The notes under the pieces: model-generated
What the model was told of the DNA's origin: nothing
The model's input: the letters and a program-made list of their open reading frames with translations, nothing else
The model's database searches: none
Program-made: the position numbers and the translations under genes
Shown: piece after piece, positions 3,744 through 64,000 of the stretch
How positions within the stretch are numbered: position 1 is the stretch's first letter
Layout: every line of letters begins with the position of its first letter
DNA from: Cymbomonas tetramitiformis
Lineage: Eukaryota > Chlorophyta > Pyramimonadophyceae > Pyramimonadales > Pyramimonadaceae
NCBI GenBank assembly: GCA_001247695.2
Contig: LGRX02028683.1
Span: 1-64,000 of the forward strand
Length of the DNA stretch: 64,000 nt
Direction of reading: 5' to 3'

Positions 3744-3909
3744 CCGAAGGGTATTAATAATTCCCGCTGATTGGTTGCGAATCACGGCATGTCACCAGTG
3801 GCCAACTTGTTCTAGACACTCCAATGAACCTCTATGGAGCCTCCACATGCGCCAGAAATGGCTTATCGGTGAGAAAAAGTGAAACCCAAACTCAGAAAAC
3901 CTAAAAACG

Positions 3910-10355: not shown

Positions 10356-13300
10356 TAGTCATGTCCTTTGTCTTAATTTCCGGGAGTTCGTATCGCTGCC
10401 ATGGTCTTGTGTCCACCACACAGTCTACACTGGGGGTGCGTCCTTCTTGGTTTGGTTCATTCGCATCGTGTAGGTTTGCCTCCCTCATCGGCTGTTTGAC
10501 AGCTGAGGTGGTGCGGATCTTGCTTTGCGGGCAGGTTGTGAGTGCCCTCCTTATACAGTCTGCGGCAGTGTCTGGGTCCCCGCAGTGTGCTTGCCATCCT
10601 TCTTTGTTGGCCACTATCAGCACCCGGAGGTTCCAGTTGCATTGTTTCGCTTGTTGGTGGGTGGCACCCATCCAGTGGTCAGGGGGTAGAAACGTGAACT
10701 TGCCTTGTGGTATTTCTAATAGTTCGTGTATTAGGTGCCCTGCATGTGCATTGTATAGCTTTCTGTACGGGGTTTTCTCATATGTCGGGTACACCCCGAC
10801 CCCGAACACCGGTTTTTGTGTGGTGGTGGCCGCTATGGCAAAGTCCAGTGCCTTTTTGAGGCCCTGTGGCGTGTATTCTGGGTTGAACTGGTAGGCTCCC
10901 AGTTTCATCCAGTTTGTAGTCCAGGCCGAGCCTCTGGCCCCGAACACCTTGTCTCTGTCATACTTGGCGTAGTACGTTGTGGTGTTGTGGTGGACATTGA
11001 GGGGTGAGGCGAATAGTTCGGTGGTAATTCCGAATGCCTGTTGTAGTGCCCTTTGCATCTGGGCAGGGAATGTCCAATGGTTTTGCAAGTTCTTTTTTCG
11101 TTCCTCCTTTTCTTCTTTGCTTGAGTACCTAATGAGGAGGTGCCCTATTTCCTCCTCGAACGTGGAGACCTGTATTTTATGGTCCTCCCACATTTCAGTG
11201 CGTAGTGTGCGCTGGTGTGGGGTTTGGTGGTCCGTGGTACCCACTGCCTGGGTGTACCTTTCGTGTAGTCTGAGAAGCTTTTCTTTCGTGAGGGTGCCTA
11301 TGTATTTCCCATTCCTGTGGTAGCTGTGGGCGAGTTCCCCCTCCAGCCGTATCTGGCAGTGGTGCCCTCTGTTGTCCACAATGTCTTGTTCTGGGTTGGT
11401 TTCTGTCGGGTCCAGTGTTAGGTTCTCCGCATGTAGTGTGGGCCAGGCCTGCCCCAGGTGCGGCCTCCCGGCCAGTATTTCTTTGAGGCCTGTGGGGTGG
11501 GTCACCTGGGAGCCCCTTGCTCGCAGTCTTCTATTCAGGGTTAGGAAGGTGGTCGCGCTTTGGCCCCTCCGTTTGGCTAGTTTTAGGTAGTCGGTTATGG
11601 TTTCCCTTGTACTCCACGAGTAGGAGTCATCCCCCTCTGAGTGTCTCCACTGGGTTCTGTACTGCGTCACCAGGGAGTGTGGGTCTGTTGGGTCAACGAG
11701 TAGTGTCCTCATTGCCACAATCTCTTTCGGCTTGTCTATCGTTCGGCCTTTCTCGAAGCCTGTCCCAAGGTTTTCGGCCATGGGGTCTATTTCATCTATC
11801 CATTTAGTTTGTGAGCGTGTGTGGAGGGGCTGAGGTTCTTCCTCTTCCTCCCCCGGTACTGGGCCGGTAGTCTCCGTTTCGTCAATCCTTGTAAGCGGGT
11901 GCAGGGAGAGTTGCCTGTGAATCTCTTCCCTGGGGACCAGCCTCGCCTCCCATTCCGTCATTTTGGCCCTCAGCTGCTCCGAGTTGAGGCGTGGGAGGTT
12001 AGTTCGTATTGCGTGGGAGTCCAGCGGCCCCTCCCTGGGCATGCTCCTGTATTGTTGCTTCAGTCGTCTGTTTGTGAGACTGTCGTAGAAGTCCCCCGGC
12101 TTCGCTATGTCCCTCGGTCGGGCTTCACATAGGTATGGGTATAGGTGTGCCAGGCCTTTTGCTATGGCACTGCGGTCTGTGTTGAGGGTTGCATCTGTGC
12201 ATTGTTCCCTGACGTTCACCTGGCTAATCGCATGTTGGCCATCTCGGGTAGTAAGGAGCGCTAGGTCCGGGAAGTGTGTAAAAAGTTTGAGGCACGTTGT
12301 GAAATTTATCGCAGTTGGCGTGTCCTTGGGTATTGTGAGCCTGGCGGTTTGGTCTGTGCACATTGCCTGCCAGTCTGGAGGCGTCGGTATGTCCCCATCA
12401 ATTATTTTGCCTGCTTTCGTTTTTCTTGTTGTTCCCTCCATTTCTTTGTCGGACTTCTTTCTGGTCGCCCCTTTTAGCTGTTCCATTATCTTTGGTATTG
12501 GGGTTTGGAGTTGTCTGAGCATCCCCTCCGTCCCCTGGGGCGTAATGTTGTATCTGAGTAGGGCATTGAGTTTCCTTAGTGTGTTGTGTTTCGTTTGGTG
12601 CCCCCCCCAGAGTTTGTCGAGGTCTGTACAGTTCCTGCGTGTGGTGCTGTGGTATTCTACCAGTCCTCTGGTGGACCTGCTGACGTGGGACATTCTGAGT
12701 CTCGACTTTAGGTTTATTTGCCTCCACGCCGGGCCTCGTACCGTTCCCTTGTCCTCTTCGCTGTGCATGGCCTCCAGTAGTCCGCTCCAAATCGACTGGG
12801 CGTAGACTGCTTGGAGTGGCACCATTCCCAAGCCGAACTTTTCCTTTTCCTGTGTGGTGAAAATGTTTGGCGTTCCGTTGCGGGGCAGGCCCTGTATGTT
12901 CTTTGTGGCCCCCCCTATTATTTTGTTGAAGTCGTCTATTTCGCCCGCTGTGTATAGCCCTAGGTGCAATCCATATCTGAATTTCCCCAGTATTGCGGAG
13001 TGAAGGGAGTATTCCTTTTGGTCCGGTGTTAGAGGGGAGCGTAGTAGAGCTTGTATTCTGTGGTTCATCTCTTCCTTAGCGGCCTCTTTCTCTTTGTCCC
13101 ACCTGCCTGTGAATGCAAGTAGTACTCCCAGGTATTTGTACGTGTCGTCTGGCTTGAGTACCTTGAAGTGGCTTAGCTTACCGTCCAGTCCCAGCATTTT
13201 GAGGTCTTTATGGAGTTGTTCGGGTATGGAGACCCCATTTTTTATGCCGGTTATGGCTGACTTGGTGAGGTTAATTTTGAGTTCACTCCACTGTGAGAAT

Positions 13301-16300
13301 GCCTGTAGTTTGTGTAGCTGAGCTCTCATGTGGCAAATCGTAGGGCATAGTATGAGTAGGTCGTCAACGAACGCCCCTGCTGTCGTCCTGAGGGGGCCCA
13401 GCCTTTCTTGTTCTGCTGCATACTTGTGTTGGTACCCATGCTCTCCCACCTCTAGCCATCTTAACAACGGTTCCTGGTATATTATGAAAAGGAGGGGGCT
13501 CATGCTGTCTCCCTGGAGGAGTCCTCTGTGCACCTGTACAGTTTCGTGTGAGGTTTCCCCTCCTACTCTGGTGTTCATGGACATTGTGTCATGGCTTTGT
13601 GTACCTAGGACATCCCGCACCACCTGTGTGAGTTCGTCGGGTATTCCAAGGTACTGCATCGTATGGAGTAGTTTGTTGTGGTCCACCGAGCCGTACGCGT
13701 TTTCGAAGTCTACATACAGGCCATGTAGTTCTCGTCCTGAGACGTTTGCATCCTCAATCGCATTGGTTACTCTGGTGAGTTGTCGAAGCGTGTTCCTTTT
13801 TTCCCTTGAGCCTTCCTGCGCCTGGGCTAGTATTCCTTGCGTTTCGCAGAACGTGGAGAGCATGTTTGCTATCTGTGAGGTGTACAGTTTGAATACCCCT
13901 TCGAGCAGGGCTATGGGTCGGTAGTTTTGCTGTAAGGTGACATCCCCTTTCTTGTGGTGGAAGCAGAATGTCCCTTTTTTCCAGGTGAGAGGGACATGTT
14001 TGCTGTTCCACATTTCCAGCATGAGTGCGTGTAGTGCATCATGGAAGTCCTCTGGCATGTACTTAAGAATTTCGTTCGGGGTCCTGGTGGGGCCCGGTGC
14101 TTTGTTGTTGTTTAGGGTGTGTACCGCTTTGCTGTAGCCCTGTCGACTTATTGTGAGGTCCAGCCCACTGGGGTCTGGTCTTGGCGTCTTTATGAGGCGC
14201 TCCCTGTGAGCTGGGTCTTCCCATGGCGGAGGTTTCGAGTCGGGTGGACTTCGGTGCTCCATCCTGTATGGTGCCGAGTGAGCCATGTGGTCTGCTAGTG
14301 CGTTAGCGATGTTCCCGTGGCCTACAGCCAGGTTGCCCTCTCTGTCCTGTAGGGCCTGTATGTTCGCCGTGGGGGCATGGCCTGTTTCTTGCGCCTTGGT
14401 ATATATCCTTTTGTGGTATCTTTTTTGGTTGTTCCAGTATTCCTTTACGGTTTTGTCATTGTGTCTTTGCTTGGCTTGTTTCCAGTGCTGTTTTACTACT
14501 TTGTGCGCTGCCGACCTTTCTTTTTTGGCCTCCTCAGTAAGCCACGACACCCATTCTTTTGCATCTGCATTGTCCCTGTCCGTTGGGCCTTTCATTTCTC
14601 CCTCTTTCAGGCTTCGGAGGGTTGAGTGTTCCGTGTGCGGGTTTCGTAGGTGTCGTTTGGTTTGCTTGTGCCTCCGCATCTTGAGTATTGCGGCGTCCCT
14701 TTCCTTTCTGTCCTTTTTGCTCATTAGCAGGTCTTTTCCCACTCGGCTGGAGGTGCCTCCAACTGTAGTAGTTGGCAGTTCGTCGTCCTGTAGCGCACAT
14801 TTGTTCGCCTCGGTGAGTATGTTTAGTACTGTTTCCCCTGCTCTGTCTATGGTGGCGTGCGCTACTTGCCTGTTGTCCTCTTCCCTGCATTGTGTGGCTA
14901 TCTCTGTTATGCGTTTCAGTTCAGCGGTTCTGGCATAGTCGTGTGTCCTGAGGAGGACGCTTTGGAGTGTTTCCCTGTGTGTTTTGTTCAGGGGCGTGTC
15001 CAGCTTTACGTGCCCTGGTTGGGGGTCGCGGTCCACATATGGTTCGTGGGTGTCTATGCTGTCCAACTGGAGGGTTGCTAGGCTCACCATCTCGTGGTCA
15101 CTCGTGTGGTGCCGGGTGAGGTGTGTGGTGTCCCCCATCTCGTATTGCGCCTGCTTGTTCCTCGGTGCAAGCCATCTGTCAATGTTCCTATGTTTCGCCC
15201 AGTTCAGTGTGGTATCGACTGGCGGGCCTACATTGTGGAGGTCTAGCTCCTCCGCAAGTTTCGTCCATTGCTTGTCGGTTTTTGTCATCCCTTTACCGGT
15301 GCTGGTGTTGCTCGCATTGAGGTCTCCTCCTATGACTACATGCTCGTTCGCCTTCCCCGCGGTTTTCCTGAGTAGGTTGGTTGTGTACTTGAGTATTTTG
15401 TCCCTGGTTTTCCACTCCTCTGCTCCTGGCGGGTTGTAAATGCCTAGCACGTGGTACATCACCTTTCCGGGTAGGTGCAGTACAACATGTAGGAGGTACC
15501 CCTCGAGGTGTCTCGCAGGGACGACATGGTGGTTGTGTGCGTGGCTGTAGGGGTTGCCGAGGAGTATTGCCACTCCTCCTTTAGTTGCCTGTTCAGCCGT
15601 GCCTTCTGCTTTTTGCACCTCAGTTTTGGTGCCTATTGCAGTGTATTGCATGTCTCTAAATCTTCTCATCACACTGTCGTGTGCGTGTTTCACTTCCGTG
15701 AGTACAATTACTTGTAGACTCTGTTGGTTTTGGCTTCTTTTGTTAATGACTTCGGCAAGGTCAAGGCAGGCATCACTTTGTCCCGCCACATTCCATGTGA
15801 GCATGTGTAGGCGGTCCTTTCCTATGTCCGTCTTTATTGGTTCTGTGAGAGGGGTTTGGTATTCTCGGAAGTCCTGGCTCGCCTCTGGTGCTTCCAGTCG
15901 TGTGTCCACGAATCTTTCCCATTGTGTTGTTGGTTCGTCCTGTGCTTGCTCCCATTCTTCGTTTAGGTGGGTTTCCTGTGCTTGCTGTTCCTCAGGTGTC
16001 TGCCCGTCATTACCTGGGGGTGTTGTGGGGGCTAATCTATGGAGCCATTCCCATAAGCCTGGTTGTTTCGTAGTAATTTTGCGTCCCCTCTCCTGGGTTT
16101 GCGGTGCCTGTCTCCCGGCCTCTGGGTTTGTGTTCAGGCCATCCGCAGGCCTCCGGGTCTCTGCCGCTCGCTGGCTTTCCACCTGCGTCCGGCTTTGCCC
16201 CTTGGCAGTGGCCATCATTTCTTTTACTGGCAGCTGTATGGACTTTCTGTAGGCGGTAATCGCCGTTCTGTCGGTGGCCCCCCATTTGCTGACTGCCTCG

Positions 16301-18863: not shown

Positions 18864-18880
18864 AAGTCGTCTGTGTGGTC
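17300..18880 (-). repeat. four degenerate 440-480-bp tandem repeats in LINE 1
   Basis: On the plus strand each unit carries ACGTAGAG followed by (A)ATTCGCTTGTGGTC; starts are near 17452, 17910, 18390 and 18829. Each also carries TTACAGCGTTACATTGCC or a close variant, near 17311, 17765, 18245 and 18685. Even spacing and a location upstream of the catalytic frames resemble the promoter monomers of some mammalian L1 elements, as analogy only. Confidence 0.8.
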
Positions 18881-31512: not shown

Positions 31513-34500
31513 CGTGATATTTGAAGGTGCACAGCTGTTACGCCTGCCCCTAGTCACATGCACAATCAAGGCGGCTTCTTACTGTTTTTTAGAGCCTTCT
31601 CCTTCTCCGACCTGCTGTGTGAAATCAACATCTTGGCAGCCCATTCCACCGCGATGCTACTGATTTTCTTGAGGAGGGCTTCCGCTTCCTTCTTGTTGAA
31701 GCCGAGGTGTTGCGTGAGAGCCCTTGCGTTGTGTTCATATACCGACCCCGTGGTTCCGAAAACCATCGGGTGAAAGAACACTTTATAGCCTTTGGATCTG
31801 AGTAGCTCCATAAGGGGCTCATACTTGTTGAGTTTATCGTGAAGGGACACATACCAGCGAGTGTCCCACGTGAAGGCCACCTCTATGAGGTGGATTTCTC
31901 CCACATCCTCCCTGTGGGTGTTTTCCGGCCTGCCTGGGGGGGCGTCCCTGACGTCCTCTGCACCCTTGATCATGACAATATCTACAAAGTGTGGTATGTC
32001 GTCTGGGGGGTCCTTCGCCCCCGGGTGGTCCCTTCCGTCCCTACGGCACTGACCCCTTCTGAGTACGAAGTCCGGTATCGGGCGGGTACATTTGTTAGTC
32101 CCGTCTAGCCCAGCGTGGTGCGCGATCCAGATCGGACTGGCGCCCGTTCGTCCCTTCCTGATCGCTTCGTAAAGGGTCCTTGCCACTTCGTTGTGCCTGG
32201 CTGTGGCCATGTTCATGCTGGTCTCGTCTTTGCATCCAGCCAGCCTGTGTGCCGGAGTGTCCCTCCTCCCGCAGAGGGCGCAGTCCGGGACCGGGTATTT
32301 GTTCGGCCATATGAGGTGCTTTCTGGCAGTCGTCATGAGGACCCCAAACCGGCACCTTAGAATCAGGGACCTGAGCGTCGGTGGAGTAACCTTCCAGAAG
32401 TGATTGGATATTCCTGGTATCGACTTGTCCTGGAGAATTTCCCGCGGGGGCTCCTCCAATCTTCTTCCCATGTGTGTCTCGACTGCGGCAGCGTCTGCGT
32501 GGCTTGTGGCGGCCCTGTCTCCGTTTCTCCGGTGCATGGCCTCCCGGTCCCTGTTTCTCTTTCTTTTTCTCTCTGGGGCCGCCTCCTGGTAGGCGTCTAT
32601 CGCTTGTTGTGGAACGTCCGTCAGGTTCTGGAGTTCCGACTCTCCCAGGTCCATCTCCATCATCGAGCGGCACAGACCGTCAATTGGGTCCTCACGTTCT
32701 GCCTCCTCGATTGCTTGCATCATCTCTCTGTCTGGCGAGTTCATGGCCCCCCTCTCGCCCATGTCCAGAGGCGGCCCCCGCGTCTCATCGAATTCCCAGA
32801 GTAGGTCCCACTCGTCCTGAGTGGTCACTTGATCCCGCGGGTGTACCTGTTCCTGGTCGCCCGGCTCCCGTCGCTCCGGCGGGTCGTCCTGGCTCCAGGG
32901 AGCGTGCTGGAGTTCCTCCAGGAGCATCGGCTCCTGGAGATTCTCCCCTGGTGTCCCCATTTCCACGTTCTGTCGGCCCCGGTCGGGGCCTTGGGCTGGC
33001 CCTGGGGCGCCGGTCGTGGGGTTCTTTGTCATAGAGCCCTCTACTGGGATGGCTCCCTCCCGATTTCCCCTGCCGGGTGTTCCCCATTCTTCCCACGGGC
33101 TGCTCGGGGGCTGTAGCCATTTTCTCACTGACCTGTGCTGTGTCGATTTTAGTGCAATCCTTCCTGCCACATACCTTTCCACCGCCCCCTCCCCCTGCAG
33201 GGGCCTCATCGATTCACCATCTCGGGCATTGGCTACGAGCGTGTACATGGTCCTGTTGTCCCATGGGTCAATTTGGGTGGTGCCCTCCTGGTTTTCTGCT
33301 GCCTGTTTGGCCGCCTCATCTGCCTTGTCGTTGCCCTTTACCCCCGTGTGGCTTTTGACCTTCCTGAGTGAGACCTTCGTTCCCTGGCTGTTATGCTGTT
33401 CTACCAGGGAGAGTATATCCTCAAGCAAATCCCTGTGTCTGTGGCCCTCCATCGTGTGGGGTCTGGATAACATGTTGAGTATTTGGTACATACTGCAGAG
33501 GCTGTCCGTGCAGATTGCTATCTCGCCCGGTGTTGTGCATTCTCTGGCCCTGAGTGCCGCGTGGATCGCCAGGAGTTCCGCCCTGTTGATGGTGAGGTGT
33601 CCACCCGTCGACCACGTGCCCCTCCAAGTTCTGGGGTTTTCATCCCCTCTGGGGTCCCAGTAGGCCGCTCCCACTCTATGTAACCCCCCTTCTTCCTCTG
33701 GGTCCAGTCGCGACCCATCCGTATAGAGGAACGAGGTTGCATCCCAGGCTTTGTTGATTTCCTCTAGGGTTCTGGAACGTCCGGTTTTGTGCTTAATGGG
33801 ACACGTGGGGAACCTCTCCCTTACTTCCGTGTGTCCCCTGTCCCTGTCTTGTCTGCTGAAGAGCATGGGAGTGCGCTCCATTGCCTTTAGCCATCTGGCC
33901 CTCGAGTCCTCTTTGATCTTGTCCAAAGGCCATGCCGTGTTCGCCGCATGGTACTCCGTGATCGTGACCTCGGCGAGTCCCCTGTCGCGCCATGTTTGTC
34001 TCATGGCCCTCGCCGCCTCCGGGGTGCGGTCTTCCTTGGGGACCTCACCCCCTTCGTTCCCCCATCCCTGTCTGCGCGACATGCTCGGTATTTCCCATTT
34101 TCTCATCGGGTGAGGGTCGAAGATCATGTCGTATTGACTAGTGTTCTCCATCGCGTTTTTGACCGCCACCATGTCTGACACTGCGTCCGAGGTGTGGACC
34201 CTCGGGTTGGCCGGCCTGAGGTTCCGAATCGTGTGGTACTTACGGACCGTGCAGTACGTGCTGCGCTGCAGGGCCTTCCCGACTAGTTCCGCCGCCCCTT
34301 CTGGGTCCGGGCAGAATTTTTGCCATCCCTCTGCGTTGGCAACAACTAGGATCCTAACTCCCCAGTTGCTGTAGTCCTTCTTCGTGACGCCTGATACCGT
34401 GGTGCCTCCCCAGTGGTCTGGGGGAAGGAACGTAAAGCTTTTTCTTGGGATCACCCCAAATTCATGTATCCTAGTATCTCCATACCTCCTGCAGTATGCC

Positions 34501-37500
34501 TTGGCTGGCGTTCTCGTCCAGGCCGGGTAAATTCCTACCCCCAGTACCGGGGTTTTCGCCATGGTGGACATCAGGGCCTCCTGAAGCGCTTTGTCTAGGT
34601 CTGCCGCTGTGTACTCCGGATTGAACTCGAAGGCGCCCAGTTCTCCCCATCGGGTGTCCCATGCAGACCCTTTGGATCCGAAAATCTTGTCCCTGTCGAA
34701 CTTGGAGCAGTATGTCGCCGTGTGGCTGTGTACGTTGAGCGGCGACGCGAATATCTCCGCCTGGATCCCGAAGGCCTCCTGGAGCGCTTGCATAATTTCT
34801 GGAGGGAGCGTCCAGTGATTTTGCAGTGCAGTTTTCTTGACTTCCTCCTCCTCCTCGCAGGAATATCTTTTGAGCAGGAGGACTACTTCTGTGGCGAATC
34901 CGTGGACTGTGCCCAGCTGTGGCTCCCGCTCCTCGAAGGACCTCCGTCGCTCTTCCCCCGCCCTTGTATGGGTCTGATCTGCGCTGTCCGTGCCCGCCGC
35001 GGCCACATATCTGTCGTAGAGCCTATCGAGTACCTCTTCTTTGAGGGCGCCTACCATCTTGCCCCGCTCGTCGTGCGCGAACACGTGGTGCCTGCCTGTC
35101 TCTGTCGTGAGCGTGCACTTGCCCGAGGGTGCTGCGTCCCAGTCTGGGTTAAAGGGTTCAGTGTCTATGTTGAGCTCGGTGACCCCCGGCCAGTAGTGGG
35201 CATGCCTCGTGGGAGCTCCTGACAGCGGTTCTCTTTCTGTGTGTCTCCGAGCCTGCTGTGCTTCCCGCTCCTTGTTGTGGAACGTGTCGGTCTCTCGTTC
35301 GGCTCGGCTCGGGTTCATTCCCGCAATTCCTCCTGTCAGCAGTGTGTCCTCTTCGACCCATGTCTCCCCTTGTGGGCGAATTGGCCCAAGCAGGTATTCC
35401 CTGCTTCCCCAGTGCGTCCTAGCCGCTAGGATTGTGGTGTTCTCGGACGCCTCAACGGCCTGGGGTTCCTCCTCCGTTTCTTCGAGCACCTCCGGATCAT
35501 TGGCAACCGTCGGGCCAGCGCCTACCGAGAGCTCCATGGTGTCTATCCTCCACCACCTGTTCCTGCTCCGGCAGTCATTAACAGGGGGGTGCGTTGCCCA
35601 TGCGACTTGTTCACTGCTTACGAGGTGCGTGGCCATCAGCCTAACCGCGTCTCTCGAGAATCCGATTTTGGCCGCATGCTGGAACAACTCCCCCGTCCTG
35701 ACATCTCCTTTGGACAATTGAGCGAGGACCCATGTCCTCAGCATCATGATCTGCGCCGCGGTCCCTTTCCATTTCGTGCCTCTGCCATCTTCCAGGCTAA
35801 CTGTGACCCGGTGGGGGCTTGTTTCCCTCTGGGGTGTCTGCGCAGGCGGGTTCGGCCTGGGTCTGATCTCCTCGCTCTCCTTTGTGGCCTGGGGGCTTTG
35901 TATGATCTGCCTGGTCCTTTTCTCACCGACCTTCGGGAGCTCCCGGGCGTGCCTGGGGGTTTCTGGCACCGTGTTTGCCTGGGTCTGTCTGGTCGGGCTC
36001 CTCCTGACTTGCATTGGCCCCGCGCTTGCCTCTTCCTGGATTTCGTCATCCACCTCCTCGAAGGAGATTGGGTCATGAATCTCTCCCTCCCCGTGGAACA
36101 CGTGGTGGCGCTCCCGTTGTTCTAATTCTCCTATGCGCGCCATGATTGGGCCTCTCATGGCTTTCCTGTATCCCTTGGAGGTCGTAGCTTCTCCGCCCAC
36201 CGGGGGCCCATGCAGCCCGATCCAGGACTCCCACCTCTCTCCTGTGGTGGACCTATTCCATTCCTGCCACTTGTCAATCATGTAGCACACCCAGACTCCG
36301 CATTGGTATCCGTCTCGTTGGTGTGCGACCCCCATGTTGGAGACCGTTACGTTGACCGGCGGCCATCCCGGCGGTCCTGCCCACTGTCTCAGCGCCGTCA
36401 TTAGGCGCGTGTCTTCCCCCCCCATTGGGTCGTAGAGGTAGATTGAAACACTGGTGTCCTCATTTTTTCCGAATAGGAGCACATTCCAGTGGCTGCCGTC
36501 GCAAGTCAGGACAAAGGAAAATCCCTCGTCCCGGACCGTTTCCATCGTGTTGCGCATCTGCGCCTCGTATTGTTCCGACTGCTCGAACTCGGTTCCGTTG
36601 AGGGCATCCGCGAGTTTCGTCTGGTGCATCGACACTGTGTCCAAGCCCGTCGTGCAGAGGCTGTGGGTTTCCACTTGTATGGAGCTAAGCCACGCCTCCC
36701 TGCCTCTGGTGTCCGAGAAGACCCCTTCCGTCCTGTGCCTGGGGGTGCCCTCCCCCCGGGGCTCGTTTCCTCTTCTTCCTCCCCCCTTCAGGAGGCTGTC
36801 CGCATGGGACCCCTCAGGGCGGTTTCTCCTCATCGCCCTCCTGCTGTCCATCGCCTCCTTCTCGGTGAGTCTTGCTCCGGCTCTGGCTGCGTGTCGCAGG
36901 TCTGAGAGGAATTTTTCCGCCTTGGGTCTCACGCCTACGGAGTCCATTATCATGACTCTACCCCCCGGGTCCTCAAGCAGGGTGGGTCTGACTCCAATAT
37001 CGTGGCATTTAAAGGCGTCTTCGTGGTCTTCTTCGTCCTTGGCGCAATAACCTGTCGCCATTTGTTTTAAGGCGTTTTTGGCTTGCATGGAGGTCGTGGG
37101 GGGTCCTCTTCTTCCTGCGTGCCACAGCGATCGCGGGCCCCATTTGGATTGAGTGGGGTGGAAGCCCTCTTCCCAAGTGGTTAGTTCTTCCCCTTCGGTC
37201 GCCTGGGGTTCTGCCAACCTTTGGAACCCTAGAGCGTTGTGTGCCTCTTTGGACGGCATAAACTGGGGTTTGAGGGTGAGGTTTTTCGGGTTGTCCCAGA
37301 ATCGCGTGTCGTTGGGCTTGTCAGCGAGCGCTTCGCATATATATGGGTACAGCATGAGCATGAAGGTTCGCATGCGCCCTTGAAACCTGGCGGGGACTTT
37401 TGTTTTTGCTTCTCTGAGGCTGCACGCACGGGTGCCCCCTTCGCCACATAAAACCCCTCCTCCACGAAAGGGAGCAGAGGCAGCAGCGTGGTCAGACTAA

Positions 37501-40500
37501 GCGGAATTTCCTCCTGGTCATTGACTGAATAGATCTTCACGCTCTCCTCACCCGTGTCCTGGTCAACGACCGTTCTGTGTCTGCCTTCGAGCGCACTCGG
37601 GAAGGGCTTCCGAACCGCGTTCGCAAGTTTGGAGATGACCCCGTGCTGGGTGTTAATCAGGTCCGCCAGCAGCGGTCCAGATCCTGTGAGCAAGACTTGG
37701 TGCTCACGTAGCACCGCAAGTTGCCGGGCTGTGCAGCACCTGTCGAGTTCCCCAGTTCTGACCGTACCGTCCACCTGTCCCTGCCTGCGGTTGTAATGAT
37801 ACCTGACTAGCCCCCTCGTGGTGGCACTAAGTTGAGAGGTCTGCTTGACATGAAAGGCCTCACTTTCCCTGAACACCTCTCTCGGCCTTTCTCGAAGGTC
37901 TTCCCTGGTGGCGGTGGCCATCTGCAGGGCGCTCGCCACACTTTGTGCGTACGTGGCCAGCAGTGGTGTGTGCCCAAGCCCGTAGGAGGTTTTCGGGAGT
38001 GCCGTGTAGCAATTAGCGGTGCCTCTTGGCAATCCATTAAGGAGCTTGTATGCCCCACCGATAATCGCGTCTAGGTCCTCGATTTCCTTGGTAGAAAAAA
38101 TTCCTAAGGGAAGGGCATATCTTAGCTGTCCTATAATTGCCGAGCGGAGGACTTCCTCCTGCTGTCCGCTCGTCAGGGGGGAGTGGAGGAGCGCCTGTAT
38201 CCTTTCCCTTGCCTGCAGAAAGGAGGCTTGCTTTTGGACCGTCCAGTCCCCCGAGAGGGCCACTTGTATCCCAAGGTACTTGTATGGGTCATCCGGGTGG
38301 AGGTACGGGAATCCATGCTTGCCTACCCTGGGGGTGCGCATGGTGACATCCTCGTATGTCTCCTCAGGGATTGGAGACCCTTTTTCGTCCGTTCCCGTGA
38401 TTCCGCATTTGGTCTTGTTGATTCGAAGTCCACTCCAGTTGGAGTAGAGCTCCAGCTTCCTGACTTGCACTGCCAGTTGCGTTGCCGACTCCGCGATCAG
38501 GGCGAGATCGTCCACGTATGCCGCCGAGGAAGTGCGAATTGGTTTGTCCGAATCCGTGAGGCGGTGCAGATACCCCTTGTTGCCCGCCTTGAGCCAGCGT
38601 AGTAGGGGTTCCAAATAGAGAATAAAGAGAAGGGGGCTCAGCGAGTCTCCCTGCACTAGTCCCCTTTTGACCATGAGGGGCTCCGAGCTGTGGTGCTCTA
38701 TCTTTGAGGCCATCCTAAAAGGTGACTTGTGTGCCTCCCCCCCGTAGAGGTCCGCCACCACTCTGACCGCGTCCTCCGGGATCCCCAGGTACTTCATGGT
38801 GTGCTGGAGTCTGTCATGCTCCACCGACCCGTAGGCGTTCTCGAAGTCCACGTAGAGAACATGCAGTTGGCTGTGGGACAGTTTGCTGTCCTCGATAACA
38901 TGCTGCAGTCGAAGGAGCTGGTTGATCGTGCTTCTGTGTTTCCTAGAACCCATCTGCTCTTGGCTGTGGATACTGTTTACCTCGCAGAACGTGGATAGAA
39001 CCTCCGTGACCATTGCCGTATAAAGCTTGAGAATTGTGCGGAGAAGCCCTATGGGCCTGTAATTGGAAAACACAGAGGTGTCCCCTTTCTTATGTAGGTA
39101 GACGAAGGTGCCCAACTTCCATGTGCCTGGGGTTATCCCCGCTTTCCACATCGCCCTCATGAGCGAGAAGAGAAATTCGTGGAATTCCTCCGGCATAGCC
39201 TTGAGGATTTCATTTGGTACCGCATCCGGGCCGGCTGCCTTCCCATTGGGGAGCCGTTTGACAATTTGTCTGTAGAGTTCAATAGTGAGCCTGCTCCCAA
39301 GCTCCATCTTCCTCGGTCTTTGCCCCGGTTTCATGCTATCCGGGGCTTCCGCCGCCAGCCATGGCATCTCTTCGTCCAGTTGGTCCGTCCTGGGGTGTTC
39401 GAAGCAATATGGGTCCGAGTGGGCCATGTGCCCCGAAAAGGCCTCCGCGGTGGCCACCGCCCCGACCGCCATTTTGTTGTTTCTGTCCCATATCCCCAAG
39501 GTTCTTCCTTTCGGGAGTGCGTCGCGGTCTCTGAAGACGAACCTGTGGGCTGACTTTTTCATGCGATAGTAGTTACTACGGAATTGTTGGACAAATGTCT
39601 CCCAGGTTTCGGCTTTGTGGTCTTTGATAACGGACTTGGCTTCCTGCCTGAACCTGCGCATCTCAGACTCCGCCCACCAGTGGGGGTCTTCCGGCTCCGC
39701 ACACGTGTCAGGTCTGCCCTTCGCCGTGTCCCGTGGCTCCGCCATGGCTTCCTCTAGCAGTGCCGCGCTGGGGGTTTCCCCTGTTGCCTTTTCTATCGCA
39801 AGCATCTCCTGTAGGACCGCCGCTGCCTTCAGCGCTTTATCACGCTTCCTGAATTTAGCTTTTGGTAGTCTGACCCCTGTGTTGGGGTCCCTGGTGACCT
39901 TGGGCTTGCACCTGACGGTTTCGAGGGGGATCTCCACGGCCCGCATGGCTTGCTGAAGGACCCCATCAACTGCCTTCCCGGCCTCATCAATTCTTTCCCT
40001 GGCGTCCGGGCTTCCCCTTTCCGCCGCGTCGACCGCGTTTTCGATCACTGTCTTGAATTCATTTTCCCTGAGACTCGGTTGGAGCGCCGAGTCTATTGCC
40101 GCCTTCATTGAGCGTTGCAAGGCTTTGGAGATCGGGAATTGATATTTCGTGATCGGGTCGGGTTTCGCCTGCTCTTCCACTATCGGTGTGGTCGTGTGAA
40201 GCTTCCACAGCGGCACCGCCGCCACTGCCGCTTGGTGGTCGCTGCAGTGCCTGTGTGCCCTGGTGTCGATCGGGTGCCGTTCGTCAGCGATCCGCTGAAG
40301 CTCTTCTGACGCTAACCACCCATCGATTTTGTGGTCCCCAAACGTGGGTCCTTGCGGGCAGCTGATCTCTGCAAGGCCCGCCCGGTCAGACATCTCTCTC
40401 CATGCACGGTGTTCTATCCCGTCTTGCTCTCTGGGGATCTCCGCGACGTTGAAGTCTCCCCCCACCACCATGTGCTCCCCCTTCCTGGAAGCCACTGCGG

Positions 40501-41927
40501 CCTCTCGGGCTATGTAATCACGGATACACGTCCTGACCACCGCTTCTTCCGGGTGGGGAGGGTTGTAGACACCGAGCACGTGCACCTTCACGCCGCTTGG
40601 CAGCGTAATAACTACATGCTGTAAATACCCTTTCGCGTATCTGGGGACTTCACGGTTAGCGCGCACGTCCGTCCTGTCGTAGGGGCGTCTGAGGGCTAGG
40701 ACCACCCCCCCTCTGTATGAAGTACCATCCGCCCCCCTCCGCTGGATTCCATGGCACGGCGCTGAGTGCCAGGCGCTGTAACCCAGACCTTGGAGTTTTT
40801 TTGGTCCCATGGGGCCCGCCGCCTTTGTTTCTGTGAGAACCAGCACGTCCGGCTGGTGTTCTTCGCAACTCCTGGCGAGGTCATAGTACGCGTGGTCGCT
40901 TCCTCTGATATTCCAGGTCATCAGGGACAGCCTACCTTCCTCCCCCACATCTGGTGGGGGTGTTTGATTCTCTTTATCGCTGTGGTGATTTGGTTCATTT
41001 TTAGATTCCCGTGCACTATTGCCCCAGCTGCCAAGTACGGTCTTTGCGCCTGCCCTATGCTGTCTCTTCTGCTGAGCTGGCGCCTGTCCACTTCCCGTCA
41101 CTTGTTGTAGTGGCCTGAGCACTGCCCTTTTGCCGGGTACTCTACCGCTCCCGCTCCGGGTGCCGGCCTGGCCTTCCGCGTGTTCCTCCTGCTTGGTGGC
41201 GATTTGCATGACGATTCTGTGTTGTTTTGCCACCCTATTGTTTGTCGTTTTCCCAGTGCCCCCAGCGGCTCTGTGCGCCGCCCTTGGCCAGGTTGACCTC
41301 TCTGGGGATTTCGTCCAGTCGCACCATGCTGCCGCCATCACCGCGACCCAGACCCCACACTGAAAGTCATCGTACTGAGTACGGAGTTTGGTGCACGTGA
41401 TTTCGGTAGGGACCCCCTGCCTTGTCCTTCTCTCTGCCCACTTTCGGGTGGCGTCCAGCAGCTCAGCATGCCCCCTCGCTCCTTCCCGTGGGTTGGGTCC
41501 GTAGGAGTCAAAGAGGTGCACGTGGGTGCCCCCCCCTTCCCCGGCCTGTTGGTCAAAGAAGAGGGCCCTCCAGTGCTCTCCGTCACACAGCGGCTGGTAC
41601 GCGAACCTCCCGTTCGCGAGTAGGCCATCGATCCCATCTCTGGCCAGAAGTTTGGAGAGGAATTTGTGCTGGTTCATCTCCTCCGGCGGAGTCGGGTCAA
41701 TTGTGTGAAGGTACCTGCTGAGTTGCACATCCGATACACGTCCCTCCACCGTGTAGAGGCCCCCCTCCTCTTGGGGGTTCGCGCCCCGTGTCTGGTTCCT
41801 TGGGGGGGGCCGCTTTTCACCCCCCCCACCGCTAAGGGGGGGGGTGGAGGGTTGATCTGTAGCTTCCCCTCCTCTGCGAGACTTCCTGTTCTTGTCCCTA
41901 TCTTCGAGCTCTTTCCTGACTTTCCTT
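31467..41927 (-). mobile_element. LINE 2: Dualen-like retrotransposon inserted in gypsy gag
   Basis: A 10.46-kb minus-strand element bounded by a perfect 10-bp duplication, TCCTTAACCA, at 31457-31466 and 41928-41937. In its own direction: Ulp1-like protease, APE, RT (YVDD), a second Ulp1-like protease, chromodomain-like segment, PCIF1-like methyltransferase, RNase H, CCHC finger, C-terminal nuclease, stem-loop and T-rich tail. It lacks the repeated 5' region of LINE 1 and starts only about 300 bp before the first protease, so it may be 5'-truncated. Two large frames overlap at 37229-37373. Confidence 0.92.
31566..37373 (-). CDS. LINE 2 downstream polyprotein: second Ulp1-like protease, chromodomain-like, PCIF1-like, RNase H, nuclease
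   Basis: A 1935-codon frame with ATG at 37373. A Ulp1-like protease lies near residues 285-370 (DGSHW, LYDPMGG, RDGYQCGVWV; Cys about 358). A segment near 640-680 reads like a chromodomain (ILAARTHWGSREYLLG, ETWVEEDTLL). The PCIF1-like domain covers about 825-1020, with EIFASPLN, FGSKGSAW, NPEY at 918-921 and ILVVANAEGWQKFC. Type I RNase H covers about 1210-1370 (LYTDGSRL, INRAELLAI, ICTDSLCS, KSHTGVKGNDKADE). A CCHC finger (CALCGRRDTPAHRLAGC) and a C-terminal nuclease-like domain (FVDIVMIKG, HLIEVAFTWD) follow. No internal stop is seen. The first residues (LYPYICEA) match the middle of the LINE 1 frame, so the break from the upstream frame is probably a frameshift here. Confidence 0.88.
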   Translation of the reverse strand: MRTFMLMLYPYICEALADKPNDTRFWDNPKNLTLKPQFMPSKEAHNALGFQRLAEPQATEGEELTTWEEGFHPTQSKWGPRSLWHAGRRGPPTTSMQAKNALKQMATGYCAKDEEDHEDAFKCHDIGVRPTLLEDPGGRVMIMDSVGVRPKAEKFLSDLRHAARAGARLTEKEAMDSRRAMRRNRPEGSHADSLLKGGGRRGNEPRGEGTPRHRTEGVFSDTRGREAWLSSIQVETHSLCTTGLDTVSMHQTKLADALNGTEFEQSEQYEAQMRNTMETVRDEGFSFVLTCDGSHWNVLLFGKNEDTSVSIYLYDPMGGEDTRLMTALRQWAGPPGWPPVNVTVSNMGVAHQRDGYQCGVWVCYMIDKWQEWNRSTTGERWESWIGLHGPPVGGEATTSKGYRKAMRGPIMARIGELEQRERHHVFHGEGEIHDPISFEEVDDEIQEEASAGPMQVRRSPTRQTQANTVPETPRHARELPKVGEKRTRQIIQSPQATKESEEIRPRPNPPAQTPQRETSPHRVTVSLEDGRGTKWKGTAAQIMMLRTWVLAQLSKGDVRTGELFQHAAKIGFSRDAVRLMATHLVSSEQVAWATHPPVNDCRSRNRWWRIDTMELSVGAGPTVANDPEVLEETEEEPQAVEASENTTILAARTHWGSREYLLGPIRPQGETWVEEDTLLTGGIAGMNPSRAERETDTFHNKEREAQQARRHTEREPLSGAPTRHAHYWPGVTELNIDTEPFNPDWDAAPSGKCTLTTETGRHHVFAHDERGKMVGALKEEVLDRLYDRYVAAAGTDSADQTHTRAGEERRRSFEEREPQLGTVHGFATEVVLLLKRYSCEEEEEVKKTALQNHWTLPPEIMQALQEAFGIQAEIFASPLNVHSHTATYCSKFDRDKIFGSKGSAWDTRWGELGAFEFNPEYTAADLDKALQEALMSTMAKTPVLGVGIYPAWTRTPAKAYCRRYGDTRIHEFGVIPRKSFTFLPPDHWGGTTVSGVTKKDYSNWGVRILVVANAEGWQKFCPDPEGAAELVGKALQRSTYCTVRKYHTIRNLRPANPRVHTSDAVSDMVAVKNAMENTSQYDMIFDPHPMRKWEIPSMSRRQGWGNEGGEVPKEDRTPEAARAMRQTWRDRGLAEVTITEYHAANTAWPLDKIKEDSRARWLKAMERTPMLFSRQDRDRGHTEVRERFPTCPIKHKTGRSRTLEEINKAWDATSFLYTDGSRLDPEEEGGLHRVGAAYWDPRGDENPRTWRGTWSTGGHLTINRAELLAIHAALRARECTTPGEIAICTDSLCSMYQILNMLSRPHTMEGHRHRDLLEDILSLVEQHNSQGTKVSLRKVKSHTGVKGNDKADEAAKQAAENQEGTTQIDPWDNRTMYTLVANARDGESMRPLQGEGAVERYVAGRIALKSTQHRSVRKWLQPPSSPWEEWGTPGRGNREGAIPVEGSMTKNPTTGAPGPAQGPDRGRQNVEMGTPGENLQEPMLLEELQHAPWSQDDPPERREPGDQEQVHPRDQVTTQDEWDLLWEFDETRGPPLDMGERGAMNSPDREMMQAIEEAEREDPIDGLCRSMMEMDLGESELQNLTDVPQQAIDAYQEAAPERKRKRNRDREAMHRRNGDRAATSHADAAAVETHMGRRLEEPPREILQDKSIPGISNHFWKVTPPTLRSLILRCRFGVLMTTARKHLIWPNKYPVPDCALCGRRDTPAHRLAGCKDETSMNMATARHNEVARTLYEAIRKGRTGASPIWIAHHAGLDGTNKCTRPIPDFVLRRGQCRRDGRDHPGAKDPPDDIPHFVDIVMIKGAEDVRDAPPGRPENTHREDVGEIHLIEVAFTWDTRWYVSLHDKLNKYEPLMELLRSKGYKVFFHPMVFGTTGSVYEHNARALTQHLGFNKKEAEALLKKISSIAVEWAAKMLISHSRSEKEKALKNSKKPP

Positions 41928-59970: not shown

Positions 59971-62900
59971 TTAATCCGGTTCGGTGTCCACCTTTTTCCT
60001 ATATAGTCTGTTAAGGCTAACTGCATATCCCGTAGCGAGGTCATGTATCTTTCTGAGCAGGTGTAGTGCTTCCTGTTTGTCGAATCCTAGGTGTTTGGTC
60101 AGAATCTTCTCCGTGTGTTCATATATCGTACCCGTGTTCCCGAATACCATCACATGTAGCGTCACCTTGTACCCGTACAATTCCAATAGCTTTACCAATG
60201 GTGCATACTTTGTATACTTCGTTTTTAGTGCCTCTTCCCAGCTCATTTCATCCGTATAGGTTACCTCAATTAGGTGTATATGCCCGGCATCCGCCATTGC
60301 TCGTTGGTGTGTGTACCCCGGCTGCTTATTCCCTTTCTCGGTTCCTTCTAGCATTACTATGTCCACAAAGTGTGGTATGGTGTCCTTTCCATGCTCTGGT
60401 GCCGGGTGGTTCCTCCCATCCATTCTGCATTGCCCTCTTGTGAGTAGGAAGTCTTCTATTGGTCTGCCTGTATTCATCCCTGACCCTTTCTTCCCCGCAT
60501 GGGTCCTTATTATGCATCCCCCTTTTCTGCCTTTATTCATACCCATTGCTATCATTTTGGTGGTCTCGTCCGACCTGCTTATTACCATGTTCCTTATTTC
60601 CCTTTCCGTACATCCCCCTAGTACATGGGCCGTGCGTATGAAACCCCCTGCATTCACCTGCCCAGGCATCCCGCAACATTTACATTTTTGTGTCCGCATC
60701 CCTCTTCTCCACTTTTTATAGGGGCCCGCCGGCAATTTGTTCGCTCTACATCTTAATAGGACTGTCACATCATGTTCGTTCAGGTACTCGTTCCCCTTTT
60801 TCCAGTACTCGTTGGAGAGTTTATGCATGGCTGTGTCCCCTTTTAGGTGTTGCATGTATTTCTCCGGCGTCTCCTGTACTGCTACCTTTATCTTTCCCAT
60901 CGAGGCCCTCCTCCATTCCCCTGCGAGTCGTGCTTCCCTTTGTGCTACCGCCTGCTGCTGTACCATTTCTTGCATTGTCACCAGTTCCTCCTGTGCCTCC
61001 TCTTGTTGCTGGGCCATTGCAGCCAGCTCTTCTTCTTCCTCCTGTTGTGTCTCCATGTTTATGTCCCGGGTTTCTGGTGGCCCTGTCCCCCGCGTTTCCC
61101 GCAGCTCGGCATGCTGTTGGGCATCCAGTGGCTCACCAGCTCCCTGTGGAGGCCCCCGCACAATTGTCACTCCCTCCTCTTGCCTCAACCTTGTTTCTTC
61201 CTCCTCTCTCCACCTGTCTTCTTCCTGCTCGTGCATCCCTGCTTCTTTCCCCGTCGTCAGGGGCATGTTTCCGTCACCCTCCTGTGGTGTTGCCCATACT
61301 CCCTGTGCCTCAATCAGTGTTTCCTCTTCCTGTTCCATTCGCAGAATCTCTATTTCTTCTTCCTGTGTCTGCATGTCTAGTTCTTCCGGCCATGTGTCTT
61401 CCTCAGTTCCCTCTTCAGCCCCTGGTTCTTCCAGCTCTCCGTTTCTTCTCGCTTTCTCAGCTTCCATTCTGTCAATGCGTTGTCTTTTGGTTTCCCATTC
61501 CTCTGGTCCAGTCTCTAGCTTCCTTTTCAGTCTTTGTATTATGTTCGTTTTTCCCGTCATTTTTGCCTCCCGTACTCGTTTTGTTACGTGGTTAAGTACT
61601 GCCTGGTGACCTTCCAATTGCCTCCCTGTGGCCTCGCATATGGCAAGTAATTTCACCGTGTCGGTGTTATCGTGGTTGAAGCCATACTCTCCCTCAACAC
61701 AGGCCTTTCTTGCCACCTCATCAGCCTTTTCATTTCCGTGTATCCCCACATGTGCTTTGACTTTATATAGTGCCACCTTGGTCCCTTCCCCGTTGAGCGT
61801 TTGTATTTGTTTCATTATTTTCCAGAGTATATCCCTGTGCACATGCTTCTCCAACGCATGAGGCCTTCTTTTCATGTTTTGTATTTGGTAAAGCGAGGTC
61901 AAGCTGTCTGTGCATATGTTTACCTCTGTGGTGCCAGTATTGGCCTCCAGCATTAGTGCCATGTATATGGCTGTCAGCTCCGCCCTGTTGACCGTTTGGC
62001 AGTGGCCCTGCCATCTTTGCATGTATTCCGCATTCTGCCCCCCTCTTGGGTCCCATACTCCCGCAGCGGTTGCCTCCTCCTGTTCCCCATTTTCCCTTTT
62101 GACTTTTCTCTGGCTTCCGTCTGTGTAGACCATCTCATTCCTGTTGAATCTTCTGTCAGGTTCTGGGTATCCTTTTCCGTTGCTGTCCCACTGGCTCTCA
62201 GGCTGTGGTTCTACTTCCTCAGTTTCACCCCGTTCCCACTGTGACCACTGGTCCCCTTCCATGTCCCCTTCTTCCGCTTTTGGGTTCGCGAATTGTAGCG
62301 CCCACCTTCTAAGTGCATCTCTGCTTATTTCTTCCCTACTCCACGTGGTGTTGGCCCCCAAGACATCCATCGTTGAGGGTCTGGGTCCCCTGTCCCCTCC
62401 CCTGGGTTCACCTTCCCTCCCCCTGTCTTCCATCCAGCGGTCAATAATCTCTTCTACATGGTTCTCCACCTGTTCTTCTGGTAATGCGCGCAGTACAGGC
62501 AGTTCATGACTCGTCCATGGGGACGGGTCTATGACACAGTCTTTCTCCCATTCCGTAATCGACCTGGGCTGTCTGTCCGTGTCCCTGAGTGTGAGAGGCC
62601 TGTGTATGTAACATGCCCTCCCTACCGTCCTGACCTTGCTTTGTGGGCATCTGAGAAGGGCCTTGCTGAATATGTCGTGTGTTCTTACCGCATTTGGGCA
62701 AAATTTCCTCCATCCCGCCGCATTTGCAACTACCAATATCCTCATGTTCCAGTTACACTGCTTGGGCTTTTGTAGGTTGTCTTGCATCCAATGGTCCGGT
62801 GGTAGGAAGGTAAACTGCCCCTCCTTCACTTCGAGTAACTCGTGTACCCTGTATCCCATGTGCTTGTTTAGTAGTTTTCTGTACGGACTCTTTGCATACG

Positions 62901-64000
62901 TAGGGTATATTCCCACCCCTAGGACGGGTTTGGCTGTTTTTGTAGCGTTTATCGCCATCTTTAGTGCCCTGTGAAGGTCTTCGGCCGTGTATTCCGGGTT
63001 GAATTGGTATGCCCCCAGTTGCCCCCATTGCGCCTCCCAGGCTGAACCAGCAGCCCCGAAGACCGAGTCTCTCGGGTATTGCGAGTAATATGTCGTAGTG
63101 TTTTTATGTACGTTGAGTGGAGAGGCAAATACTTCTGTCCTGGCCCCCGTAGCTGCTTGGACCGCCTCCATCATTTCTGGGGGAAGGGTCCAGTGGTTCT
63201 GCAGGTTTCGTTTTCTGTGCTTCATTTCTGCCTTACTGGAGTATCTTATGAGTAGCTGCGCAATTTCCTCCTCAAACGTGTCAACATGTATTTTATGCTC
63301 CAGTTTCAATCTCAGCCTTTTGGCCAGCTGTTCCCCTGTCGGGCATTGAACCGCTCCATCTCCCACCTCTCTGGTATATCTGTTGTATAGTTCCCTGACT
63401 TTTGCCGTGCTGAGGGTGCCTATCAGACCTCCGTTGGGTTCATAACAGTAGGTAGTGTCGCCTTCAGTACGCAGCTGCCTGTTTTTTGTGTTCAGTGTTT
63501 GTTTAATGTCCTGGTCTGGGTTTGTTTCCCCCGTGGTTATCGTCAAATGGGTGACCTCCTTCCAGTACCTTTGCTCGCTTCTCGGCTTGCCTGCTAGTAT
63601 TTCACTCACGGGCCCACTTTTGGTCCTTTCATCCTGTTTGGTGCCTTCCCATTCCTCCACCAGTTCCTCCCATCTTCGGTTCCCTGTGGGGTTGTGTTCC
63701 GGTATGTGTTTTCTAATTGTCTCTTCGGTGCTCCACGTGCTCAGAACATTCCCTTCACTGTCAGTCCACTGAGTTTCGTATTGTATTACTTTCGAGTCTG
63801 GGTCTGCAGGGTTGTCCAGGTACTGTCTACTGGCCAGTATCCTGGTAGGTGCGTGGGTTCCTTCCCGGTCCGGCGCCTCCATCGGGTCCTCCTGTTTTGC
63901 CCATTTGCGTTCGTCCAGCTGTATCAGCCCTTCTCCGGCACTTGCTTGTGGGGTCCATTCCCCCATTATGTCATCTTCTTCCCACTCATGGTCCACTCCT
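59971..64000 (-). CDS. LINE 3 polyprotein, C-terminal part: chromodomain-like, PCIF1-like, RNase H, nuclease
   Basis: At least 1341 codons, open at the window edge and ending at 59971. A chromodomain-like segment lies near residues 50-100 of the visible part (RILASRQYL, VIQYETQW, STWSTEETI). The PCIF1-like domain covers about 235-435, with EVFASPLN, FGAAGSAW, NPEY at 333-336, FLPPDHW and ILVVANAAGWRKFC. RNase H covers about 618-760 (VYTDGSQRK, VNRAELTAI, ICTDSLTSL, KAHVGIHGNEKADE). A long Glu/Gln-rich coiled-coil spacer follows. A CCHC-type finger (CKCCGMPG and, downstream, HVLGGC) and the C-terminal nuclease-like domain (FVDIVMLEG, HLIEVTYTDE, KYTKYAPLVKLLELYG) come last. No stop or frameshift is seen. 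Confidence 0.88.
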   Translation of the reverse strand, partial: GVDHEWEEDDIMGEWTPQASAGEGLIQLDERKWAKQEDPMEAPDREGTHAPTRILASRQYLDNPADPDSKVIQYETQWTDSEGNVLSTWSTEETIRKHIPEHNPTGNRRWEELVEEWEGTKQDERTKSGPVSEILAGKPRSEQRYWKEVTHLTITTGETNPDQDIKQTLNTKNRQLRTEGDTTYCYEPNGGLIGTLSTAKVRELYNRYTREVGDGAVQCPTGEQLAKRLRLKLEHKIHVDTFEEEIAQLLIRYSSKAEMKHRKRNLQNHWTLPPEMMEAVQAATGARTEVFASPLNVHKNTTTYYSQYPRDSVFGAAGSAWEAQWGQLGAYQFNPEYTAEDLHRALKMAINATKTAKPVLGVGIYPTYAKSPYRKLLNKHMGYRVHELLEVKEGQFTFLPPDHWMQDNLQKPKQCNWNMRILVVANAAGWRKFCPNAVRTHDIFSKALLRCPQSKVRTVGRACYIHRPLTLRDTDRQPRSITEWEKDCVIDPSPWTSHELPVLRALPEEQVENHVEEIIDRWMEDRGREGEPRGGDRGPRPSTMDVLGANTTWSREEISRDALRRWALQFANPKAEEGDMEGDQWSQWERGETEEVEPQPESQWDSNGKGYPEPDRRFNRNEMVYTDGSQRKVKRENGEQEEATAAGVWDPRGGQNAEYMQRWQGHCQTVNRAELTAIYMALMLEANTGTTEVNICTDSLTSLYQIQNMKRRPHALEKHVHRDILWKIMKQIQTLNGEGTKVALYKVKAHVGIHGNEKADEVARKACVEGEYGFNHDNTDTVKLLAICEATGRQLEGHQAVLNHVTKRVREAKMTGKTNIIQRLKRKLETGPEEWETKRQRIDRMEAEKARRNGELEEPGAEEGTEEDTWPEELDMQTQEEEIEILRMEQEEETLIEAQGVWATPQEGDGNMPLTTGKEAGMHEQEEDRWREEEETRLRQEEGVTIVRGPPQGAGEPLDAQQHAELRETRGTGPPETRDINMETQQEEEEELAAMAQQQEEAQEELVTMQEMVQQQAVAQREARLAGEWRRASMGKIKVAVQETPEKYMQHLKGDTAMHKLSNEYWKKGNEYLNEHDVTVLLRCRANKLPAGPYKKWRRGMRTQKCKCCGMPGQVNAGGFIRTAHVLGGCTEREIRNMVISRSDETTKMIAMGMNKGRKGGCIIRTHAGKKGSGMNTGRPIEDFLLTRGQCRMDGRNHPAPEHGKDTIPHFVDIVMLEGTEKGNKQPGYTHQRAMADAGHIHLIEVTYTDEMSWEEALKTKYTKYAPLVKLLELYGYKVTLHVMVFGNTGTIYEHTEKILTKHLGFDKQEALHLLRKIHDLATGYAVSLNRLYRKKVDTEPD

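What the first reader, a model, noticed from the sequence alone, without database searches (positions are those of the whole stretch)
62690..63295. PCIF1/CAPAM-like methyltransferase domain inside Dualen-type LINEs
Between RT and RNase H, LINE 3 (62690-63295), LINE 2 (34305-34895) and LINE 1 (10565-11175) share a block of about 200 residues. It has NHWT(L/F)P, E(V/I/L)FASPLNVH, a Y..(Y/F)xRDxxFG..GSAW segment, GA(Y/F)(Q/E)FNPEYT, PVLGVGIYPTY, FTFLPPDHW and R(I/V)L(V/I)VAN..GW. The order and the FASPLN / FGS-G / NPxx / aliphatic-strand pattern match the PCIF1 family (cap-adjacent N6-methyladenosine methyltransferase), where the catalytic motif is NPPF. Three diverged copies keep NPEY, so the block is under constraint. 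A self-encoded RNA or DNA adenine methyltransferase could mark the element's own cap-adjacent base, hide its RNA, or act on cDNA. I know of no established description of such a LINE but cannot search.
Basis: partly seen in the sequence, partly recalled or inferred. Interest (0 to 1): 0.93.

Follow-up and report, generated by a model that had tools for sequence, protein, structure and literature searches.

The report
Jumping gene carries RNA-methylating enzyme domain
A family of jumping genes, found in a green alga and in many unnamed sequence records, carries inside its copying machinery a relative of the enzyme that chemically marks the start of messenger RNAs, so the element may mark its own RNA; whether the domain is active is not known.

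Summary

The domain is not local. All 55 PCIF1-bearing rows of a 109-row RT tree fall in one supported clade of 68; 0 of the 41 rows outside carry it. This fits one acquisition.

Best reading: an ancestral, probably catalytic adenine-N6 methyltransferase module, since inactivated in part of the clade. Substrate is undetermined; no activity was shown.

The parts
59971..63999 (-). LINE 3 ORF (1342 aa, 5' part cut by the window edge): PCIF1-like domain, RNase H, C-terminal RLE-like domain
62653..63489 (-). LINE 3 PCIF1-family domain (stretch that superposes on human PCIF1 416-668)
63190..63198 (-). LINE 3 NHW motif, in the stretch aligned with PCIF1's active-site loop (F479-P494)
   Evidence: loop limits from PMC10544176 (passage)
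63112..63129 (-). LINE 3 FASPLN motif, identical in human PCIF1
62989..63000 (-). LINE 3 NPEY, aligned with the catalytic NPPF (human N553-F556)
61699..62139 (-). LINE 3 RNase H
   Evidence: PF00075 E 7.8e-18
59980..60819 (-). LINE 3 C-terminal zinc-knuckle-like plus restriction-like endonuclease (RLE) type domain
   Evidence: own profile, CxxC..H..C, rpD, EV and K pattern
34302..34907 (-). LINE 2 PCIF1-family core
   Evidence: PF12237 E 5.2e-20, own profile aa 864-1065
34611..34622 (-). LINE 2 NPEY
38261..39091 (-). LINE 2 reverse transcriptase
   Evidence: PF00078 E 2e-30
40439..40921 (-). LINE 2 APE-type endonuclease
   Evidence: PF03372 E 5.5e-15
33297..33731 (-). LINE 2 RNase H
   Evidence: PF00075 E 1e-16
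31599..32411 (-). LINE 2 RLE-type domain
10576..11169 (-). LINE 1 PCIF1-family core
   Evidence: PF12237 E 1e-16, own profile aa 1792-1989
10873..10884 (-). LINE 1 NPEY
13123..13953 (-). LINE 1 reverse transcriptase
   Evidence: PF00078 E 5.5e-28
15160..15801 (-). LINE 1 APE-type endonuclease
   Evidence: PF03372 E 3.7e-6, PF14529 E 4.1e-7
9519..9905 (-). LINE 1 RNase H, interrupted by a stop codon
   Evidence: PF00075 E 2.6e-8
7764..8594 (-). LINE 1 RLE-type domain

Best explanation
A PCIF1-family adenine-N6 methyltransferase domain was built once into the polyprotein of an early Dualen-type LINE, between RT and RNase H, and has travelled with it since (shown: homology, fold, position, one clade; one origin is the simplest reading of the tree). 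In the lineages that keep the NHW/NPEY active site, including all three window elements, it most likely binds SAM and methylates adenine N6 on the element's own RNA, or on the RNA/cDNA intermediate, in cis with the RT (inferred). Other lineages lost the catalytic loop and kept a faster-evolving shell (shown), which probably only binds RNA or holds the polyprotein together (inferred). Methylation of the cap-adjacent A in particular is only one of the possible substrates.
Against: The third position of the tetrad is Glu, not Pro, and I know of no characterised N6-MTase with NPEY (recalled). 31 of 60 domains lack the Asn, so the activity is dispensable to many elements. Most of PCIF1's helical domain (residues before about 416), which per PMC10544176 (passage) recognises the m7G cap, has no match. 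There is no activity, expression or methylation data. NPEY rows are related, so the p value (5e-9) overstates the evidence; on the PCIF1 tree the starred branches force only one change of the motif, so repeated loss is likely (5-6 changes by parsimony) but not proved. The tie between NPEY and NHW is not significant on independent pairs (p 0.25).
Confidence: 0.58

Rival explanations
1. Pseudo-enzyme: the LINE domain is a PCIF1-fold RNA- or protein-binding module without methyl transfer even in NPEY lineages, like the catalytically dead Drosophila Pcif1.
Against: A dead site would not be expected to keep N, P, E and Y all invariant across such distances, nor would the domain's rate be expected to double just in the rows where NPEY is lost.
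Confidence: 0.25
2. DNA N6-adenine methyltransferase acting on the new cDNA or target DNA, by analogy with the Dam domains of DIRS retrotransposons.
For: One of 19 members matches Pfam Dam (E 3.8e-4), one phrog_111 DNA methyltransferase (E 2.2e-6) and one TIGR01712 (E 0.0076) (which member is not told). P0080 aa 1490-1577 align with Dam positions 4-75 at 16.6 bits. DIRS elements are reported to carry Dam-like methylases (PMC5890265, PMC6338049, passages).
Confidence: 0.15
3. Chance or misfiled motif: not a methyltransferase fold at all.
For: Single-sequence similarity to human PCIF1 is weak (phmmer E 0.0028).
Against: Profiles and folds of an NPEY-rich set and of a separate motif-less set both lead to PCIF1.
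Confidence: 0.01

Closest known systems
PCIF1/CAPAM, cap-specific adenosine-N6 methyltransferase (PF12237; 6irv-6is0)
   Same: Core methyltransferase fold, FASPLN, D..FG, the NP-x-aromatic loop, end of the helical domain
   Different: NPEY for NPPF; no match to the WW domain or the main helical domain found; LINE-specific NHW and FxF..D.W/kW.v in the loops next to the active site; embedded in a retroelement polyprotein
Dualen/RandI non-LTR retrotransposons (APE plus RLE; PMC4640811, passages)
   Same: APE-type EN, RT, RNase H and C-terminal RLE-like domain; a Pleodorina starrii protein sits inside the clade
   Different: A PCIF1 domain in Dualen did not show up in the paper searches named in the Full report section; whether the original Chlamydomonas Dualen has it could not be checked
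DIRS retrotransposons with Dam-like N6A methylase
   Same: Retroelement polyprotein with an adenine-methyltransferase domain (PMC5890265, PMC6338049, passages)
   Different: Tyrosine-recombinase element (recalled), Dam family rather than PCIF1 family
SymbioLINE-Dnmt and other DNMT-bearing retrotransposons
   Same: LINE with its own methyltransferase (PMC5890265, passages)
   Different: Cytosine-C5 enzyme, mostly in an ORF upstream of the RT ORF, called structurally unrelated to Dam there; the passages speak of the tested LINE enzyme's inability to methylate DNA de novo in yeast
Phage Clade-3 adenine methylases near PCIF1
   Same: Reported as closest to the clade defined by PCIF1 (PMC7824862, one passage)
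   Different: Smaller phage proteins; the LINE 3 domain matched none of 50,697 phage records by tblastn

Membership tests
PCIF1 family (PF12237) | Match to the family profile above the curated cut-off | tested here: met
   54.0, 72.2 and 61.4 bits against 31.1; some relatives fall below it, e.g. P0047 25.5 and P0090 15.1 bits
PCIF1 family (PF12237) | PCIF1-type fold, well above other methyltransferases | tested here: met
PCIF1 family (PF12237) | Catalytic NPPF tetrad | tested here: not met
   NPEY in 27 of 60; N lost in 31 of 60; NPGL in 2 of 60. Hence member by descent, not shown to be a CAPAM enzyme
PCIF1 family (PF12237) | Helical domain that recognises the m7G cap | tested here: inconclusive
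   only PCIF1 residues 416 onward match; the stretch between RT and the domain was not folded
PCIF1 family (PF12237) | N-terminal WW domain binding Pol II CTD | tested here: inconclusive
   No WW family listed for the six window ORFs (E up to 1) or the nine further window stretches (E up to 0.01); LINE 3 is cut by the window edge, so its N-terminus was not seen
PCIF1/CAPAM enzyme | m6Am formation next to the cap | not testable with these tools
   needs an enzyme assay
Dualen/RandI LINE | APE-type endonuclease and RT | tested here: met
   LINE 1 and LINE 2; LINE 3 cut off before them
Dualen/RandI LINE | Second, restriction-like endonuclease at the C-terminus | tested here: met
   by motif only: C-terminal CplC..H..C then rpD, Ev, k as the consensus of 49 PCIF1-bearing proteins; a profile search of solved structures gave only weak hits to Holliday junction resolvases
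Dualen/RandI LINE | RT phylogeny with named Dualen elements | tested here: inconclusive
   no Repbase Dualen sequence at hand; Pleodorina starrii P0078 is inside the clade; volvocine relatives of Chlamydomonas carry Dualen (PMC8226300, passage; that Pleodorina is volvocine is recalled)
Dam (PF05869) | Family profile match above cut-off | tested here: not met
   1 of 19 members at E 3.8e-4; P0080 16.6 bits against 28.1

The most novel reading that the evidence does not exclude
The whole Dualen group of LINEs, from Cymbomonas and volvocine algae to the many unnamed records of this clade, descends from an element that captured a PCIF1-type enzyme with a new NPEY catalytic loop, and uses it as a self-encoded RNA adenine-N6 writer that acts on its own transcript or template; several branches later turned it off. 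This would be a LINE-encoded RNA modification enzyme.
Probability: 0.4. Interest if true: 0.9.

Novelty: new variant of a known kind. Interest (0 to 1): 0.78.

Why it matters
Retrotransposons with DNA methylases (DIRS Dam, SymbioLINE-Dnmt) are known, but a PCIF1-family RNA-methyltransferase relative as a fixed part of a LINE clade did not show up in my paper searches. It offers a testable case of a mobile element that may write m6A or m6Am on its own RNA. It also gives a natural series of catalytic-loop losses, which could help to separate catalytic from non-catalytic roles of the PCIF1 fold, and it gives a domain marker for a poorly studied LINE group.

Tried and rejected
Phage records: no tblastn match for the whole LINE 3 ORF (E 1e-5) or its domain (E up to 1). 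Viral contigs: 53 pattern matches with profile A1, none confirmed. Domain-level protein searches (in one search only the 8000 candidates sharing most words were scored) found only proteins named as Cymbomonas, or EukProt entries of unstated species; the RT search was what reached the wider clade. The RLE-domain search of solved structures gave only weak hits to Holliday junction resolvases (E 6.8e-4 to 0.018); I rest the RLE call on motifs. dN/dS was not usable because dS could not be computed in 7 of 10 comparisons; I used domain against domain identity and distance ratios instead. The link between NPEY and NHW is visible in counts (16 both, 29 neither, 3 and 2 mixed, of 50 rows), but only 4 independent pairs on supported branches exist, p 0.25, so I do not claim it as tested. 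Considered and rejected: chance motif; membership in Dam; a claim of cap-specific activity.

Not obtained: the window's own genome, Foldseek searches ('pdb', 'viral'), the original Dualen paper, the 2016 review of eukaryotic adenine methylation, the Drosophila Pcif1 paper and a mouse PCIF1 paper.

Full report
WHAT WAS CHECKED. The finding's three blocks lie on the minus strand inside long ORFs: LINE 3 59971-63999 (cut by the window edge), LINE 2 31566-37496, LINE 1 10111-16542. The quoted motifs are there. Pfam PCIF1_WW (PF12237) matches these three ORFs with 54.0, 72.2 and 61.4 bits against a cut-off of 31.1. RNase H follows in all three elements; in LINE 1 it sits in the next ORF. APE-type endonuclease and RT precede in LINE 1 and LINE 2.

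HOST. The best protein match of the LINE 2 domain is a Cymbomonas tetramitiformis protein, 97% identical. Cymbomonas is a green alga of the Pyramimonadophyceae. The window's own genome could not be searched (tool busy), so the host is inferred from protein identity.

SPREAD. A search with the LINE 1 RT gave 109 proteins at E 1e-20 or better among 6723 candidates. Beyond Cymbomonas most come from records without a named organism (sources ena, jgi, lgn), so their habitat is not known to me. I held 129 proteins; 73 match an iterated domain profile, 60 of them over more than 150 of its positions. The RT tree has 109 rows: 107 of the 109 hits (P0008 and P0031 fell out, RT stretch too short) plus the window's P0003 and P0006. 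55 rows carry the domain (P0026 by its last 31 residues only), and all lie in one clade of 68 rows: SH-aLRT 97 in the quick tree, bootstrap 97 and SH-aLRT 89 in the careful tree. None of the 41 rows outside carries it. Counting only PCIF1 rows against RLE-bearing rows without it, the tree needs one change. The 13 clade rows without it are short: by the lengths they end before, or within about 80 residues of, the place where the domain begins in their nearest relatives; one is the window's own P0006, whose next ORF holds the domain, and one is Pleodorina starrii P0078, which stops in the RT. RT, PCIF1, RNase H and RLE were all found in 43 proteins, in that order in 43 of 43; PCIF1, RNase H and RLE in 49, in that order in 49 of 49.

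ACTIVE SITE. Aligned to human NPPF (N553-F556), 27 of 60 domains have NPEY, 2 have NPGL, and 31 lack the Asn. Of the 19 domain proteins from the window and searches have NPEY; P0019 reads NLEY and P0021 NPAEY, and P0020 and P0022 lack the region. By the residue offset and the loop limits in PMC10544176 (passages seen), the LINE NHW motif lies in PCIF1's active-site loop (F479-P494), and FxF..D.W with kW.v lies in the substrate-binding loop (P612-N638). The NPEY set mostly keeps these; the motif-less set does not (consensus of 15 and 31 rows after I dropped 14 near-copies from 60). Of the 31 domains without the Asn, 20 keep the Glu before FASP, 16 keep FxSP and 24 keep D..FG; of the 29 with it, 29, 26 and 26. 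On the RT tree NPEY needs 6 changes; on the PCIF1 tree 5, of which supported branches force only 1.

READING. Loss of the tetrad goes with loss of constraint on this domain and not on the RLE. That is what one expects if the tetrad is the working part where it is present. This favours catalysis in NPEY lineages, but Glu for the second Pro is unusual (recalled), and nothing here measures activity. Cap-adjacent methylation is not supported over other adenine substrates, since the cap-binding part of PCIF1 is mostly unmatched. The pseudo-enzyme reading has a precedent in Drosophila Pcif1 (cited in PMC10544176, passage and reference title).

PRIOR WORK. Ten literature searches showed no paper whose title or abstract start reports PCIF1 in a LINE. 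Several lists were cut (20 of 74, 20 of 33, 12 of 195, 15 of 1,370 papers), and most listed papers I saw only as listings; of ten papers I saw passages. DIRS elements with Dam-like methylases and dinoflagellate LINEs with DNMT are described in PMC5890265 (abstract, outline and passages); Dam and DNMT retrotransposons also in PMC6338049 (passages). Dualen as a group with both APE and RLE is described in PMC4640811 (passages). PMC8868631 reports PCIF1 in eukaryotes only (passages); PMC7824862 reports phage relatives (passage). The original Dualen paper and the 2016 review of eukaryotic adenine methylation are not held, so priority is open.

Noticed in passing
P0081 (3489 aa, LINE protein, organism not named), aa 2127-2269 and 2496-2574: One LINE polyprotein holds both a PCIF1-family domain and a C5-cytosine methylase match (PF00145 E 1e-10), plus a PHD finger.
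   Followed up: partly
P0091 and P0104 (sister LINE clade without PCIF1): SET domain (protein lysine methyltransferase type) at the N-terminus of a LINE polyprotein: P0091 aa 64-188, E 2.5e-5; P0104 by precomputed Pfam only.
   Followed up: partly
window 16227-19001 (-) and LINE 2 ORF aa 321-406: Ulp1/C48-like protease stretches next to the LINEs (PF02902 E 0.002; LupA E 0.007), both below Pfam's cut-offs; some relatives carry Josephin or C48.
   Followed up: no
window 9516-9518 and about 10111-10358 (-): LINE 1 has a stop codon inside RNase H and a change of frame between the PCIF1 ORF and the RNase H ORF; an annotated 2996-aa near-copy (P0023) in Cymbomonas runs through PCIF1, RNase H and RLE.
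   Followed up: partly
window 3883-6441 (+): DDE transposase ORF (PF13843 E 4.2e-24), piggyBac-like by recall.
   Followed up: no
window 29912-31009 (-) and 24869-25618 (+): LTR-type protease plus RT fragment and a BED zinc-finger ORF: the window is dense in transposable elements.
   Followed up: no
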